Below are positions 4,050 to 13,712 of a DNA stretch of 26,232 nucleotides, in pieces. Each line of letters opens with the position of its first letter. The first letter of the stretch is position 1. The notes beneath the pieces are model-generated. The model did not search any database. It was not told the origin of the DNA and saw nothing but the letters and a program-made list of their open reading frames with translations. The translations under genes and the position numbers were made by a program. The DNA comes from a virus: positions 1-26,232 of IMG/VR virus record IMGVR_UViG_3300050821_002772; one strand, given 5' to 3'.

Positions 4050-5630
4050 TTAGCAGACTAGATAACCACTGAAAGTAGAGTTCTTCGAACCGGCCCCTGC
4101 TCCGCCCGCTCCGCCCACTATTTCTATGTTTTTACTAGCGTTTCCAGCGACTTGAACTTGTATTTGCACTTCATCATTTGCTGAGTTTTGTATAAGAACT
4201 GAACCCGAATAACATTGGTTGCTTACGCCTGATGTTGCAGTAAATGGAGCGGAAGGGGCAAGATAATATCCATATGCACTATTTACAACGACTTGCACAT
4301 AAAAAACTGTGTTTGAGCCTGCCACGGATGGATCTAAAATAACGGTAGCATTATATTGATAAAGTCCAGCAACAGGGCATTTGTAATAATTTGAACCCGT
4401 ATTGAAATTTGATCCTTGATCGAATAATACTGTGTCAAAGGGAACAAATACATATGTGCCATCGCCTGTTACATCGCCTGTGCTAGCAGAGAGATAAGCT
4501 AAAAATGCTGGTTGTCCTGAATTATTGCTTATTCCATTAACGCCTATTTGCCCCGTAGAATTATCTACAATGACAGTGGAACCGTTAACATTTGTTCCTG
4601 TAATTCCTGCGACATAGCAAGTATTTTGCTTTCCAGGCGTGCCCCCCTGATTTCCAATACGGATTACATGAGAGTCGCCAGTAACGCCAGGATTATTAAT
4701 GCAAACATTGCTAGATTCCGCACCCGTATAATTATTGCCTGCTATATCACCTATAGCAACATTGTTTGAGCCTGTAACCAGATTAAATAAAGTAGTATTA
4801 CCTAATGAAAGATTATTTGTACCCGTAGTAATTTTATCGCCTGCTGTAAAACCTACAATTGTATTCCCTCCACCGGATGTAATTGCAGGTAATGCTCCAA
4901 ATCCTAATGCAATGTTATTGTCTGCCCCATTTGATACAGCGCTGGCGTTTCCTGCTCCTGAGCCGATAAAAGTATTGTCATTTGCATCAGTTACATTGAA
5001 TGTCATCGTTGCAGATGATCCATCAAATGAAACGGATGATCCGGCGCTAGAGGCTCCTGTGAATGTGACTGTCGATCCTGTGACTGAGCCAGTATCGCCG
5101 TCTATAGTGGTTATTCCACTGCCACCACCGCCCGCTTGCCATGAAGGAGGCGCGCCAGAATTGGCTGTAAGCACATATCCAGGAGTTCCGGAATTGGCAA
5201 GCCAAGAAGGTATCCCAGTAGTCCCAGATATTAATACCCCGTTATCTGATGCTGTTATTTGTCCAACAACGTTATTAGATGAACTATATAAGAGTTCGTT
5301 AATAGTGGTGGTTGAAGGATAAGTGGCTGTAGAATATGAAGGATCAGCGCCCGAATTATTTTGTAAAACAGCTCCAGTATTTGCAGTTGGCCCTACTTTG
5401 GTGATCGTTGCCGTGCCAGCGCCGACTAAGACCGCATGATTTGTAAGCCCCGTAAGTTCTGTTGTAAGAGTATTGGTTCCAGGGTTGCCGACTACGGTGA
5501 TTGACCCAGTTCCGACGGTATTAATATTGCCTGTACCATCTGGCCCGACCTTTCCGCCAGAATTGCCTTCTAAAGTTTGGACCGCTCCTACTGGAATCAA
5601 TCCCGTATTGCTAGCACCTGCTTGGCTCAT
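4050..5630 (-). CDS. Tail fibre with YadA-head-like repeats and C1q-like tip
   Basis: A 526-aa protein. Residues ~1-170 are low-complexity fibre shaft with modules such as AVLVGAGTATITKVG and GYVLTANSGAPPSWQ. Residues ~218-345 contain repeated NTFIGSGAGN / NIALGFGAL / NNVAIGDIAGNN units, like the left-handed coil of trimeric autotransporter (YadA-type) heads. Residues ~373-526 resemble a C1q/TNF jelly roll: AFLAYLS at the start, VPFDTVLFDQGSNF, YYKCPVAGLYQYNATV, and a final SGYLVC. Both folds are trimeric in known families, which suits a trimeric fibre with a receptor-binding C-terminal head. Its ATG directly follows the stop of the upstream 112-aa gene (TAA-ATG). Confidence 0.78.
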   Translation of the reverse strand: MSQAGASNTGLIPVGAVQTLEGNSGGKVGPDGTGNINTVGTGSITVVGNPGTNTLTTELTGLTNHAVLVGAGTATITKVGPTANTGAVLQNNSGADPSYSTATYPSTTTINELLYSSSNNVVGQITASDNGVLISGTTGIPSWLANSGTPGYVLTANSGAPPSWQAGGGGSGITTIDGDTGSVTGSTVTFTGASSAGSSVSFDGSSATMTFNVTDANDNTFIGSGAGNASAVSNGADNNIALGFGALPAITSGGGNTIVGFTAGDKITTGTNNLSLGNTTLFNLVTGSNNVAIGDIAGNNYTGAESSNVCINNPGVTGDSHVIRIGNQGGTPGKQNTCYVAGITGTNVNGSTVIVDNSTGQIGVNGISNNSGQPAFLAYLSASTGDVTGDGTYVFVPFDTVLFDQGSNFNTGSNYYKCPVAGLYQYNATVILDPSVAGSNTVFYVQVVVNSAYGYYLAPSAPFTATSGVSNQCYSGSVLIQNSANDEVQIQVQVAGNASKNIEIVGGAGGAGAGSKNSTFSGYLVC

Positions 5631-9611: not shown

Positions 9612-9649
9612 GTTAATTTTTAATCTCTTTTCATATAAATTTAGTGCGT

Positions 9650-9922
9650 ATGAAAAATCATCAACACTATTTTGGTATGAAATTTTATAAACGTCCAGAA
9701 GGTTATTGGTCGTGCACAAATAACGCAAGAATTTACGCTCATCGCTGGGTCTGGATGATGTTCTATGGCGAGATTCCAAAGGGCATGCAGATTCATCATA
9801 TAGATCAGAACAGATCGAATAATGAGGTCACAAATTTGCAGATGCTAGATAAGTCGACTCATATGAAGTATCATTGGAGGAGAAAAAGGTATAATCCGAA
9901 TCAGTTGTATTTTTCGTTTTAA
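9650..9922 (+). CDS. Small HNH endonuclease (HNH_3-like)
   Basis: A 90-aa protein. The core is typical of small phage HNH_3 enzymes: YAHRWVWMMFYGEIP (residues 29-43), then MQIHHIDQNRSNNEVTNLQ (46-64) with the His-His-Ile-Asp metal/catalytic site and conserved Asn residues. A basic tail YHWRRKRY follows. The family cuts or nicks DNA and commonly spreads as a homing gene. I prefer ATG 9650 over an in-frame GTG at 9644. No good SD is present. A TTGTTA/TATAAA pair at 9610-9639 (18-base spacing) might serve as a promoter, but the AT-rich context makes it weak evidence. It is inserted between the terminase and portal genes. Confidence 0.85.
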   Translation: MKNHQHYFGMKFYKRPEGYWSCTNNARIYAHRWVWMMFYGEIPKGMQIHHIDQNRSNNEVTNLQMLDKSTHMKYHWRRKRYNPNQLYFSF

Positions 9923-9990: not shown

Positions 9991-10665
9991 ATGACTATAT
10001 GCACAACATGCAATGAGCAACCAGCAAGAGGGAAACTTGGCACTTGTAAGAAGTGTTATTACAAGGAATACCATTTAAAAACATACAAAAAGAAAGACGG
10101 TTCTTGCACTATTTGTGGGTCAAAAGAAGTTACATTAAGAGGCAAATACTGTGACACATGCCGAGAACAATTAGAAAGCCAATGTTGCGATTGTGGAAAA
10201 ATTTTTAAATATGGGGCTAAATACAAACGTTGTACAACTTGTCAATATCATTATTATAAAAATCATAGGCCCGAATTATTTAAAAACTTTTATGAAAAAC
10301 TAAAAATCTCCCAAAAAGAACGAAGACGAATAAAAAAAGGATTGCCTTTAGATCATGACTTTCACAAAGGGCCAAAAGGAGAAGGATATCTCAATAAAAA
10401 GGGATATGTCAGGATGGTCTTCAAACATGCCTCTGGAAAAGGATATGTGCGAATTTACCAGCATGTTTTGGTAATGCAAAAGTATCTAGGGCGCGAATTA
10501 CATGAAAACGAATCCGTTCATCATAAGAATGGAATTCGCAATGACAATCGAATAGAAAATCTTGAGCTTTGGAATAAAGGTCAACCAGCGGGCCAACGCG
10601 TTGAAGATAAGATTAATTGGTGTATTGAGTTTTTAAGACAGTACGGATATAAGGCGGATAAGTAG
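9991..10665 (+). CDS. HNH homing endonuclease with zinc-ribbon N-terminus
   Basis: A 224-aa protein. The N-terminal ~90 residues contain repeated cysteine knuckles (C4/C7, C19/C22, C39/C42, C54/C57, C65-C68, C81/C84), enough for up to three zinc ribbons that would read DNA. A basic linker KERRRIKKGLPLDH follows. The C-terminal nuclease has YQHVLVMQKYLGRELHENE, then SVHHKNGIRNDNRIENLELW with His177/His178 and conserved Asn residues. The last helix is GQRVEDKINWCIEFLRQYGY. The 13176-13712 protein is a clear paralogue. It ends 29 bases before the portal start codon, and the portal gene is itself interrupted by a group I intron without an ORF. This enzyme might therefore drive mobility of that intron or protect the site (inference). 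Confidence 0.9.
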   Translation: MTICTTCNEQPARGKLGTCKKCYYKEYHLKTYKKKDGSCTICGSKEVTLRGKYCDTCREQLESQCCDCGKIFKYGAKYKRCTTCQYHYYKNHRPELFKNFYEKLKISQKERRRIKKGLPLDHDFHKGPKGEGYLNKKGYVRMVFKHASGKGYVRIYQHVLVMQKYLGRELHENESVHHKNGIRNDNRIENLELWNKGQPAGQRVEDKINWCIEFLRQYGYKADK

Positions 10666-10694
10666 CAAATAAATTCTATAGTTTAGGAGGCTAA

Positions 10695-10762
10695 ATGGGT
10701 TTTTACTATCCGCCCTGGAATGCAGAAATTGAGCCGAACCAAGGGAATGTAAGATCGTGGCT
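10695..10762 (+). CDS. Portal protein, exon 1 (codons 1 to 22 plus 2 bases)
   Basis: The true start of the portal gene. AGGAGG lies 5 bases before ATG 10695. The exon encodes MGFYYPPWNAEIEPNQGNVR, then Ser-Trp and the first two bases of codon 23 (CT). Unspliced, reading on meets a stop at once (CTA TAA). The last seven bases, CGTGGCT, pair with GGCCACG at 10772-10778 to form intron helix P1. The final T pairs with G as a U.G wobble, the hallmark of a group I 5' splice site. After splicing the frame continues into the long ORF from about 11066. Without the exon, the downstream ORF lacks any SD of its own. Confidence rests on the P1 helix and frame agreement. Confidence 0.85.
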
Positions 10763-11065
10763 ATAAAGTCTGGCCACGTAATTTGATTGATATGAGACAA
10801 CCTATACTCGAAGTTCCAGCCAATCGAACAATCGAGATGGAATCAATCAAACATCGATTAAAAGTGAGTCGATGTTAAACCTTGGGTAATTGGCTTGGAA
10901 GCCCGACAGGGTGACAAGGGGCAAGCGAAAGCAGCCTGAACGACTAAATCCTAGGGCACCGAATGGTGATGCGATAGTCTGAACACGACGTATAGAAAGA
11001 AAGGTCGTGAGGGAGATTCGAAGAAGTTTCCCCGCCTAGTTAAATCTAGGTCATACAAGTAACAG
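10763..11065 (+). ncRNA. Group I self-splicing intron in the portal gene
   Basis: About 300 bases with no ORF. Helices drawn by eye: P1 (10756-10762 with 10772-10778, U.G at the splice site); P2 (10782-10791 with 10842-10851, 10 bp perfect); a hairpin 10851-10857/10869-10875; P3 (CCTTGGG 10880-10886 with CCTAGGG 10950-10956, two G.U pairs); P5-like (10894-10897/10915-10918 with inner CCC-GACA-GGG); P7 (GACTA 10942-10946 with TAGTC 10975-10979); P8 (CACC-GAAT-GGTG 10957-10968); P9 (CACGAC 10984-10989 with GTCGTG 11004-11009); and P9.2 (CCTAG 11035-11039 with CTAGG 11046-11050). The conserved R-like GAACGACTAAA and S-like GATAGTC sequences are present. The 3' end is uncertain: G11065 and G11059 both preserve the reading frame. 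No convincing P10 was found. Confidence 0.92.
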
Positions 11066-13073
11066 AATGACCCTCTTTTATGCAGGCGCACAGAACTTTG
11101 TAAACCGGTATTTTAATTTTAGCCCGACAACGAGCTACAACAACTACTATTTCAACCTGATCCAGCAGCCAGTTAATATGGTGACGGGATATCAGCGTCA
11201 ACATCGGAAGAACTTTAGCTATGTTCCATCTGAAGGATCAGACGCGCAAACGACCGATCAATATACGCGCCTCATTACTCACATAGCCAATACGAATCAA
11301 ATTCATGAGCAATTCTCTCGCGCATGTGAGCAATCTGCTATCACAGGAATGGTTTTGCTTCAACCCTACTTGGATTTTACCGGAGACGATCCAGCACAGG
11401 GTGAATTAAAGCTAAAGTTATGGGAATACAACTCGTTTTTGTGCGACCCCTATGCCAGGTCATTAACCTTTGAAGACTCACAATTCATCTGGTGTCAAGA
11501 ATATATTTCAAAGCAAGAGGCCGAAGAAAGATTCCCTGGCAAGAAAACTCAAATAATGCCGATGTCTGGCACGCCTCAGCGGTATGGCAATTTCTATTTC
11601 CTTCCTGAAAACTACAACATGGCCCGCAATGATCTAATGGTGCTTAGCTATGTCTGGTATAAATGGAAGCGCAAAAAGAAACGCCTTTATTCCGAAAAAC
11701 GAAATCAATTCTTTGACTTTGCTGGCGGCGACGGTCAAATGGACGCTCTGATCCAAAACATCCCCGATCTTCAGGAAGTAACCGTAGATGTTCCTACATG
11801 GAAGCTAGCTGTTGTTCTAAATGATCAATTGATGTACCAGGGGGATAACCCACTTAAAACAGATGCTTGCCCTTTTGTCCCAGTTCTTTGGAATTACGAG
11901 CCGCATATTAACTATTACGATCTACGTGTGCGAGGCCTTATTCGTACTATGCGTGATCCTCAGTTCTTATTTAATTACAAAGTTATTCAGAACAATGACA
12001 TCGCTGCTGCGACGATTAACGCGGGGTGGAAGCGCAAAGTAGGAGCTGTCGCAAATGAAGACAATCTTAAGAAATCTGGTCAAGGCTGGGATGTCATTAT
12101 TAATGACGGCTATGAGATGACAGATGTCGATAAGATCATTCCTTCTGCCGTCCCTGAATCTGATCTTGCATTGGCTCAGCAAATGGCCGATCTGATCTAC
12201 AACACGTCTGGCATTAACCTTGAGAATTGGTCCGGACAGCAAGACAAGCAGGTATCAAGCTTAACTGTACTATTGAAACAAGCCGCTAATTTAATGGTAT
12301 TCCAGAAGTATTTCGATCAATGGGATTTATCTCTAAAAACACTTGGTAAGAGTCTTATTGACATTGTTCTAAATAATTGGAGCGCGGAAAAGGTATCCAT
12401 GCTCATTAACGAAGAGCCTAGCCCGTATTTCTATTCCAAGGTATTTGCTAAGTATGACTGCATCGTGGAAGAAAGCGATCTGACCCCAACTCAGCAAAGT
12501 CTTCAAGCACAGCAAATGATGGAAATGAACGAACGCTTTGGCAGGGAAATATTCTCCCCAAGTCAAATTATTCCAAAAATGAACATTACCGGTAAGGCAG
12601 AGGTCATTAAAATTTTACAACAACAAGAACAACAGGCACAGGCGGCGCAAGAACACGCAATGCACTTAACCCACGCTATTGAAGAAGCTAAGTTAAAAGA
12701 GTTGTATGCGAAGAGTGCGCTTGCTATTGCTAACGCGAGAGAAAGACATGGCAGGGCAGAAAGCAATATTGGTTTATTCGAAGAACGTTTAAGTATGATA
12801 GGCCGTAATAACGCAATGTCTAATAAGGCTAAAATGGAAGCTCTCGAAAAACTTGTCGACGTAACACACAGATATGGAGAACTAGAAGCTCACCTTAAAA
12901 TGAATGAGATAGACTCTATAGATACGCAAGAACAGACAAAAGAAGATATTGCAAAACAAGATGCAAAAAGAACAAGCCTTTCAAATGATTTTGTTGCCCA
13001 AATGCTTTCAGGAATGGGACAAAATCAAGAAGAAATGCAACAAGAACAAGGCGGACAAGAACAGGGAATGTAA
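11066..13073 (+). CDS. Portal protein, exon 2 (P22-like)
   Basis: Encodes the remaining ~668 residues, for a spliced total of about 691-693 aa, near the 725 aa of P22 gp1. The portal is the 12-subunit ring at the packaging vertex that binds terminase and later the tail adaptor. Visible features are: an N-terminal stretch MTLFYAGAQNFVNRYFNF with YYFNLIQQPVNMVTGYQRQ; a wing/stem region with SFLCDPYARSLTFEDSQFIW, a phrase typical of P22-type portals; a segment VRGLIRTMRDPQFLFNYKV; and a C-terminal glutamine/alanine-rich coiled coil (EQQAQAAQEHAMHL onward) like the helical barrel of P22 portals. The chain ends in a Gln/Gly-rich tail. It is the only long rightward ORF between two paralogous HNH genes. 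The exon start is 11066 or 11060 depending on the 3' splice site. Confidence 0.9.
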
Positions 13074-13086
13074 ATATACTATATTG

Positions 13087-13152
13087 AACATGTCTAGAGC
13101 GACGGCTCGAAAAGCTAATTTCCGATTGGCCTGACATGTTTTTTCAATCGGA
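13087..13152 (+). ncRNA. Interlocking stems after portal: terminator or pseudoknot
   Basis: Stem A pairs AACATGTC (13087-13094) with GACATGTT (13133-13140), followed by a T-run (13139-13144). It encloses a small hairpin GAGC-GACG-GCTC (13097-13108). Stem B pairs TCCGATTG (13121-13128) with CAATCGGA (13145-13152). The 5' arm of B lies in A's loop, and the 3' arm of A lies in B's loop. The two must therefore form a pseudoknot or exclude one another, as in a terminator/antiterminator. It sits just before an HNH gene. Confidence 0.5.
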
Positions 13153-13175: not shown

Positions 13176-13712
13176 ATGAATAAAACTATTAAAACTCACA
13201 AATCTTGTATAACATGCGGAAAGCACGATTACAGATATTCTAGAAATATGTGCATGTTGTGTTATTCTCGTGCTTATAAAAAAGAAAATCCAGAAAAGGA
13301 AGCAAAAAGAGCAGCCAAACATCATAGAAGAAGATGGGAAGAAAGAAGAATAAAAAGAGGACTTCCATTAGATCATATTATTATGAAATTATACATAATC
13401 CAAAATGGATACAAACTTCTTTGGATTCCAAACCATCCAAATTCGAAAAAACTTGGTTATATCCAAGAACATCGCCTTGTAATGAGTAATTATCTTAAAA
13501 GGCCACTTTCTAAATATGAAACAGTGCACCATAAAAATGGGGATACTTTAGATAATCGCATAGAAAATCTTGAATTATGGTCATCTCGTCACCCAAAAGG
13601 CCAAAGAGTGGAAGATAAAATTTCCTGGGCTAAAGAATTCTTGAATGAATATGGATACGATGTTATTCAAAGAATAGAAACCAATAAAGAACCAGAAGGT
13701 TCTAGGGAGTAA
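13176..13712 (+). CDS. HNH homing endonuclease, paralogue of 9991-10665
   Basis: A 178-aa protein. It has one N-terminal zinc ribbon (C11/C14 and C26/C29), where the upstream paralogue has several, then a strongly basic helix (KRAAKHHRRRWEERRIKRGL). The HNH_3-type nuclease shows YIQEHRLVMSNYLKRPLSKYE, then TVHHKNGDTLDNRIENLELW (His118/His119), and KGQRVEDKISWAKEFLNEYGY. The last ~80 residues closely follow the 9991-10665 protein, so the two share recent ancestry. An SD (GGAGG) lies about 11 bases upstream. It follows the portal stop by 100 bases of structured RNA and sits before small phage genes, as expected for a free-standing homing gene inserted at a gene boundary. Confidence 0.9.
   Translation: MNKTIKTHKSCITCGKHDYRYSRNMCMLCYSRAYKKENPEKEAKRAAKHHRRRWEERRIKRGLPLDHIIMKLYIIQNGYKLLWIPNHPNSKKLGYIQEHRLVMSNYLKRPLSKYETVHHKNGDTLDNRIENLELWSSRHPKGQRVEDKISWAKEFLNEYGYDVIQRIETNKEPEGSRE

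What the first reader, a model, noticed from the sequence alone, without database searches (positions are those of the whole stretch)
10695..11080. Portal gene split near its start by an ORF-less group I intron
The sequence shows a ribosome-binding site, ATG and 22 codons (10695-10762) that stop at once unless spliced. A 7-bp P1 with a U.G pair lies exactly at the exon end. P2, P3, P7, P8 and P9 helices and R/S-like core sequences can also be drawn. The downstream portal ORF resumes in frame after G11065 or G11059, with no SD of its own. Group I introns are known in phage terminase, polymerase, nrd and lysin genes; an intron at codon 23 of a P22-type portal seems uncommon. A naive gene call would miss the true N-terminus.
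Basis: partly seen in the sequence, partly recalled or inferred. Interest (0 to 1): 0.85.

Follow-up and report, generated by a model that had tools for sequence, protein, structure and literature searches.

The report
Core-less mini-intron beside a ribozyme intron
The start of this phage's portal gene is broken by two inserts, a normal self-splicing group I intron and, 64 bases before it, a 32-base mini-intron with no catalytic core whose tail base-pairs right next to its neighbour, so one RNA enzyme probably removes both; such pairs recur in many uncultured phages and I found no natural precedent.

Summary
Intron-less homologous portals read M-FYYPPW...NVRQWLDNLYSKFQPIEQSRWNQSNIDTLFYAG. In the window, residues DNLYSKFQPIEQSRWNQSNID are encoded inside the proposed intron, in another frame. 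Layout: exon 1 10695-10762; 32-nt mini-insert 10763-10794; 64-nt exon 10795-10858; 211-nt group I intron 10859-11069; portal resumes at 11070. The ATG at 11067 is the end of the intron.

Mini-inserts of 28-55 nt recur in related phages, in portal, major-capsid and one other gene. Each has group I substrate features (U.G-topped P1, P10, terminal G) but no core. A third helix pairs the mini's tail with the exon just before the downstream full intron's P1; when that intron sits elsewhere, the tail changes to match. All 59 testable unique capsid minis have a group I intron downstream; full introns also occur without minis. P10 and the docking helix covary strongly.

Best reading: a core-less satellite mini-intron removed by the neighbour's ribozyme core. 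Splicing itself is inferred; no RNA was tested. Ribosome bypassing does not fit.

The parts
10685..10690 (+). ribosome-binding site AGGAGG of the true portal start
   Evidence: sequence
10695..10762 (+). portal exon 1, MGFYYPPWNAEIEPNQGNVRSWL (first two bases of codon 23)
   Evidence: matches the N-terminus of homologous portals
10763..10794 (+). 32-nt core-less mini-intron, ends in G, stop codon TAA read directly after codon 23
   Evidence: absent from intron-less homologues; removal restores codon CT|A and frame
10756..10762 (+). P1 5' strand of the mini (CGTGGCT), pairs with 10772-10778 (GGCCACG), U.G at the splice site
10768..10771 (+). P10 strand of the mini (GTCT), pairs with 10795-10798 (AGAC) of the next exon
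10782..10791 (+). docking-helix strand in the mini tail (TTTGATTGAT), pairs with 10842-10851 (ATCAATCAAA) directly before the main intron's P1
   Evidence: 10 bp; formed in the unconstrained MFE fold
10795..10858 (+). 64-nt exon 2, (L)DNLYSKFQPIEQSRWNQSNID
   Evidence: 21 of 21 residues DNLYSKFQPIEQSRWNQSNID identical to the homologue used as query
10852..10858 (+). P1 5' strand of the main intron (CATCGAT), pairs with 10868-10874 (GTCGATG)
10859..11069 (+). 211-nt ORF-less group I intron ('main'), ends in G; P7 strands about 10940-10946 and 10975-10980 with bulged C10941
   Evidence: homologues, fold z = -3.9, covarying P3-P8 core
11070..13073 (+). portal exon 3, from TLFYAG; P22-type portal
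   Evidence: PF16510 E=1.4e-57, PHROG 156
9991..10665 (+). free-standing HNH endonuclease gene directly upstream of the portal
   Evidence: PF13392 E=2.5e-10, PHROG 20891; role in spread not tested
13176..13712 (+). second HNH endonuclease of the same PHROG, downstream of the portal
   Evidence: PHROG 20891 E=7.8e-27; role not tested

Best explanation
The portal pre-mRNA carries a two-intron, one-ribozyme unit. The downstream 211-nt element is an ordinary group I intron. The upstream 32-nt element is a core-less satellite intron. It supplies only the substrate half of a group I intron: an internal guide that pairs with the 5' exon (P1, U.G at the splice site) and with the 3' exon (P10), plus a terminal G. 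Its tail pairs with the exon stretch immediately before the main intron's P1. This docking helix sits where P2 would be and joins the mini's P1 to the main intron's core. The core would use guanosine to cut after U10762 and then join U10762 to A10795, releasing the mini. It would then use its own P1 to remove 10859-11069. The docking helix holds the mini beside the core only while the main intron is still in the transcript, so the mini is probably removed first. Shown: anatomy, covariation, association with a downstream group I intron, matching of the tail to the main intron's position, restored reading frame. Inferred: that splicing happens, that the neighbour's core does it, and the order.
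For: Homologues fix the exon content without any RNA assumption. Removing mini plus main restores the conserved protein in the window and in 6 of 7 other first-found portal loci. Minis at four portal positions and in other genes show the U.G P1 and the terminal G. In the capsid gene, 60 of 60 unique minis end in G, and the variable third base of the following Thr codon is complementary to the mini in 60 of 60 (C-G 42, T-A 8, A-T 6, G-C 4); neither was part of the search pattern. P1, P10 and docking helix on 36 rows: 95.1% of cells paired, covariation score 0.333 against 0.103 +/- 0.010 for shuffles and at most 0.081 for slid versions. The docking helix ends 6-9 nt before the main 5' splice site in 54 of 55. 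Tails fit the exon of their own class of main intron (mean score 8.3 to 10.8) and not other classes (3.5 to 4.4). Dependency: 59 of 59 testable capsid minis have a downstream group I intron, and so do all true Leu23, Trp9 and Ser36 portal minis found by mini-only patterns; mains without minis exist (L289, L292; 40 mains with long open upstream exons). Unconstrained folding forms the mini's P1 in 68 of 70 and the docking helix in 61 of 70. The main core covaries in P3-P8, score 0.515 against 0.178.
Against: No RNA data: nothing shows that splicing occurs. RF00028 does not score the main introns. L204 has an A.C mismatch at the first P10 position and the second L046 mini needs a bulged P10. L044 and its copies L279 and L285 are one base out of frame after splicing by the rule. 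Seven capsid minis have only 5 contiguous docking pairs unless a bulge is allowed, and in L273 the best helix lies elsewhere. P1 of the capsid set was demanded by the search pattern and is not independent there. Contigs are metagenomic and related, so counts are not independent events, although mini sites and tail classes differ.
Confidence: 0.85

Rival explanations
1. The mini-insert is not spliced: the ribosome hops over it, as over the 50-nt gap of T4 gene 60, and only the downstream element is a real intron.
For: A stop codon directly after the last exon codon, a hairpin at that point and nearby HNH genes recall T4 gene 60.
Against: Bypassing needs matched take-off and landing codons; in the window these would be CUA and UGA, in the capsid minis GGU and triplets such as AAG, UUG, AUG or CCG. 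In L015, L046 and L059 only splicing restores the conserved Trp9 codon (T|GG). Bypassing does not predict the terminal G, P10, the docking helix or the downstream group I intron.
Confidence: 0.05
2. Group I chemistry removes the mini, but the core comes from elsewhere: the excised main intron, another copy or another intron of the phage acts freely in trans.
For: Mini and core are separate parts; engineered group I ribozymes can remove core-less introns in trans (PMC4094466).
Against: A core lies downstream of every testable mini, usually within about 110 nt, and the tail pairs with exon next to that particular core. Free trans action predicts neither. The window record holds a single core.
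Confidence: 0.06
3. The two inserts and the exon between them are one intron with its 5' splice site at 10762, so the middle exon is skipped.
Against: Joining T10762 to A11070 shifts the frame and drops 21 conserved residues; middle exons of 26, 27, 40, 43, 55, 64 and 86 nt would mostly shift the frame too.
Confidence: 0.03
4. The mini is a decaying or artefactual insertion and the portal gene is broken.
For: Metagenomic contigs; L044 is out of frame after splicing.
Against: Sixty distinct capsid minis with compensatory changes in P10 and docking helix, and otherwise intact conserved portal and capsid reading frames.
Confidence: 0.01

Closest known systems
Group I self-splicing introns of phages
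   Same: Main intron: U.G-topped P1, P3-P8 core with bulged P7, terminal G. Mini: P1, P10, terminal G.
   Different: The mini has no core; one core appears to serve two introns; the family is not recognised by Rfam RF00028.
Engineered trans excision-splicing ribozymes and spliceozymes (PMC4094466)
   Same: A group I core removes an intron that lacks one; short pairings to the exons (P1, P10) guide it.
   Different: Those are laboratory constructs acting on another molecule and bring their own guide; here the guide lies in the mini and the core lies downstream in the same transcript, joined by a docking helix.
Group III introns and twintrons of Euglena plastids
   Same: Introns shortened to little more than their splice signals, thought to borrow a catalyst (general knowledge; library hits were not read in detail).
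   Different: Those derive from group II introns; here the chemistry signature is group I and the putative catalyst is an identified neighbour.
T4 gene 60 ribosome-bypass element
   Same: Short insert, stop codon right after the last exon codon, hairpin, homing-endonuclease genes nearby.
   Different: No matched take-off and landing codons; terminal G, P10, docking helix and a downstream group I intron instead.
Tandem group I introns with exon skipping (phage Twort orf142; discussed in PMC10136302)
   Same: Two introns flank a short exon in a phage gene.
   Different: There both introns have cores; here one has none, and skipping would break the frame.

Membership tests
Group I intron (main element, 10859-11069) | P3-P8 catalytic core with bulged P7 and its conserved G-C pair | tested here: met
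   40 relatives: 99.3% of cells paired, covariation 0.515 against 0.178 shuffled; A-U/G-C exchange in P7 beside a bulge
Group I intron (main element, 10859-11069) | P1 with U.G at the 5' splice site and terminal G at the 3' splice site | tested here: met
   CAUCGAU/GUCGAUG; ends at G11069, the only G that keeps the frame
Group I intron (main element, 10859-11069) | score above the Rfam RF00028 cut-off (a detection model, not a biological feature) | tested here: not met
   no hit in the window or in 24 relatives' loci
Group I intron (main element, 10859-11069) | guanosine-dependent self-splicing | not testable with these tools
   needs in vitro transcription with GTP
Group I intron (mini element, 10763-10794) | P1 with U.G, P10 and terminal G | tested here: met
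   window and nearly all related minis
Group I intron (mini element, 10763-10794) | own P3-P8 catalytic core | tested here: not met
   32 nt in all, no room for a core; hence works like, but is not filed as, a group I intron
T4 gene 60-type bypass element | matching take-off and landing codons | tested here: not met
   CUA against UGA in the window; GGU against AAG, UUG, AUG, CCG in capsid minis
Twintron (intron within an intron) | one intron nested in another | tested here: not met
   coding exon 10795-10858 separates the two
Trans excision-splicing by a group I ribozyme | removal of the insert by a core that lies outside it | not testable with these tools
   inferred from association and docking helix
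P22-type portal protein (host gene) | profile match over the protein | tested here: met
   PF16510 E=1.4e-57, PHROG 156 E=1.2e-46

The most novel reading that the evidence does not exclude
A new class of natural intron: core-less satellite introns of 28-55 nt that keep only the group I substrate parts and are addressed by a docking helix to a neighbouring group I ribozyme, which removes them before removing itself. They are spread through portal, capsid and at least one other gene of a group of uncultured phages: a natural two-introns-one-ribozyme system and a living example of how catalytic cores can be lost and shared.
Probability: 0.83. Interest if true: 0.95.

Novelty: categorically new. 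Interest (0 to 1): 0.92.

Why it matters
Every natural group I intron I know of carries its own core. If these minis are spliced as inferred, one ribozyme removes two introns, which as far as I could find has been done only with engineered RNAs. It parallels what is proposed for degenerate group II introns and the origin of the spliceosome, where introns keep their splice signals and borrow the catalyst, and it makes that step testable in an RNA of about 400 nt. It also offers a minimal natural design (guide, terminal G, docking helix) for RNA excision. Finally, standard gene calling and Rfam miss both the introns and the true starts of portal and capsid genes in these phages.

Tried and rejected
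RF00028 on the window and on relatives: no hit, judged a blind spot of the model. Bypassing: rejected by codon mismatch and by the restored Trp9 codon. A first mini finder based only on P1 and frames gave many ambiguous ends and was replaced by homology-defined and structure-defined searches. Capsid minis that seemed to lack a downstream core (L205, L211, L226, L248, L265, L272) have a group I-like intron at another site or with an ORF inside; L215 ends at the contig edge. Known phage records: the capsid segment has no match, the portal only distant ones. GTDB genomes: one MAG contig carries the capsid mini. Library searches on trans excision-splicing, tandem introns and phage group I introns showed no natural case; only open-access papers were searchable. 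Six of ten matches of the Trp9 pattern were unrelated sequences. The L191 candidate was not counted: its middle exon contains a stop.

Full report
WHAT WAS CLAIMED. A portal gene split after codon 23 by one ORF-less group I intron, with the 3' splice site at G11059 or G11065.

WHAT IS THERE. The SD, ATG 10695, 22 2/3 codons to T10762, the immediate stop and the 7-bp U.G-topped P1 are real. The ORF listed from 11067 is a P22-type portal (PF16510 E=1.4e-57; PHROG 156). The decisive test was homology. Eighty related portals were fetched. Most read M-FYYPPWNNALEPNQGNVRQWLDNLYSKFQPIEQSRWNQSNIDTLFYAG without interruption. They are present in the window, at 10796-10858, in another frame. So there are two inserts: one of 32 nt (10763-10794) and one of 211 nt (10859-11069) between GAT (Asp44) and ACC (Thr45). 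Removing both gives MGFYYPPWNAEIEPNQGNVRSWLDNLYSKFQPIEQSRWNQSNIDTLFYAG.... The ATG at 11067 is the last three bases of the intron.

THE MAIN INTRON IS A GROUP I INTRON. It has its own 7-bp P1 with U.G (CAUCGAU/GUCGAUG) and ends in G. It folds better than all 200 shuffles, z = -3.9. A profile built from nine portal introns gave 207 hits in the loci then held. On 40 diverse cores P3, P4, P5, P6, P7 and P8 are paired in 99.3% of cells, with covariation 0.515 against 0.178 +/- 0.009 for shuffles and at most 0.101 for slid versions. P7 shows A-U/G-C exchange beside a bulged base, as at the guanosine site of known group I introns (general knowledge). Rfam RF00028 does not recognise these introns; I treat that as a limit of the model.

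THE MINI-INSERT IS NOT UNIQUE. Among the 80 portals, which were not selected for introns, those with a full group I intron near the start of the gene also carry a short insert a little upstream; L046 has two such pairs. (L043 starts inside the intron; its longer copy L279 shows the pair.) The short inserts are 29-55 nt and lie after Trp9, Leu23, Pro32 or Ser/Ala36. In each, without having been selected for it, the 5' exon ends in U, the exon end pairs with a guide inside the insert with U.G on top, and the insert ends in G. Splicing restores a conserved codon, for example T|GG = Trp9 in L015, L046 and L059. None has room for a core.

P10. The guide also pairs with the start of the following exon. 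The cleanest test is the major capsid gene (PHROG 1357), where the same kind of insert lies after FYG. A pattern that fixed only P1 and the two exons found 82 contigs with 60 unique inserts. All 60 end in G. The variable third base of the following Thr codon is complementary to the insert in 60 of 60: C-G 42, T-A 8, A-T 6, G-C 4.

A THIRD HELIX TIES THE MINI TO ITS NEIGHBOUR. The mini's tail pairs with the exon immediately before the main intron's P1: in the window UUUGAUUGAU with AUCAAUCAAA, 10 bp, directly 5' of CAUCGAU|. In 55 cases the median is 9 bp, the helix ends 6-9 nt before the main 5' splice site in 54, and 46 reach p<=0.05 when the tail is shuffled. On 36 capsid rows the three helices together pair in 95.1% of cells with covariation 0.333 (shuffles 0.103 +/- 0.010, slid at most 0.081). 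In capsid genes the main intron sits after NEQV, QDPV or GVSL, and the same mini site then carries different tails. Each tail class fits the exon before its own main intron (mean score 8.3 to 10.8) and not the others (3.5 to 4.4). At the window's own mini site, Leu23, relatives have main introns after Pro32 (L307, L311), Ser/Ala36 (L308, L309) and near Ser41 (L310), where I read matching tails by eye in the printed sequences. Unconstrained folding forms the mini's P1 in 68 of 70 and the docking helix in 61 of 70, and both in the window.

DEPENDENCY IS ONE-WAY. All 59 testable capsid minis have a group I intron downstream; the sixtieth contig ends exactly at the predicted splice site. The portal minis found by mini-only patterns all have one too. 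Main introns without minis are common: 40 have long open upstream exons, eight capsid loci keep the exon intact, and L289 and L292 carry an intron at the window's main site with no mini.

HOW IT PROBABLY WORKS (inference). The mini supplies P1, P10 and the terminal G. The docking helix sits where P2 would be, so that mini P1, docking helix, main P1 and P3 follow one another as P1, P2, P2.1 and P3 would in an ordinary group I intron. The main core could remove the mini first, since docking relies on exon beside a main intron that is still present, and then itself. Main and mini introns occupy the same portal site in different phages (Ser/Ala36: main in L009, mini in L029, L044, L050). This suggests that minis are introns that lost a redundant core, which is a guess. 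Three HNH genes lie around the portal and could drive spread; not tested.

RIVALS. Bypassing fails on codon matching and on Trp9. Exon skipping fails on frame. Free trans splicing does not explain the address-like tail. Decay does not explain compensatory change.

NOVELTY. Engineered group I ribozymes remove core-less introns in trans (PMC4094466). Tandem phage introns and exon skipping are known (PMC10136302). I found no natural core-less group I intron in the searchable literature, which covers open-access papers only. The chemistry would be that of known group I introns; the organisation is what is new.

LIMITS. All evidence is sequence. Splicing, the use of the neighbour's core and the order are inferred. 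Exceptions are listed under evidence against.

Noticed in passing
L019/L294, L022/L293, L041/L300, L057/L296, L295, L304 (portal codon 37; coordinates): A different kind of portal insert, 47-60 nt: a hairpin of about 14-18 bp starting at the last exon codon, no group I core nearby, no U.G P1. The codon at the gap matches the one before resumption (CGG to CGA or CGG; CTC to CTA or CTT). These look like T4 gene 60-type ribosome-bypass elements and deserve their own study.
   Followed up: partly
window 13087-13152; L015 2004-2068; L029 1821-1883: int-alpA RNA (RF02996) lies between the portal stop and an HNH gene in the window, and recurs near the portal in two relatives.
   Followed up: no
L138, L091, L153, L120, L123: Contigs with the capsid gene can carry three to six group I introns, some with ORFs inside, some separated by exons of only about 25 nt.
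   Followed up: partly
L115 10572-10649; L282 10258-10292 and 10615-10647: Mini-intron pairs in a third gene (GLEGLRVGNADALEIRIA|YYGNLICSAPG) and two minis in one capsid gene of another clade.
   Followed up: partly
L044 2767-3010 (copies L279, L285): Splicing by the rule leaves the portal one base out of frame at the main intron: an assembly indel, an unusual splice site or a dead intron.
   Followed up: no
L191 about 5150-5330, minus strand: Possible further mini in another structural gene (NPWLAMIPKNESP...FAGKYIP) with a 5-bp P10 but an imperfect P1; not resolved.
   Followed up: no
L305 (CAIPPE010000153.1): The capsid mini-intron occurs in one contig of a Methylococcaceae MAG: a hint at a host, or a viral contig binned with it.
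   Followed up: no
window 9644-9922: A third HNH-like ORF between terminase and portal (PHROG 99 E=4.8e-17), so three HNH genes surround the portal.
   Followed up: no
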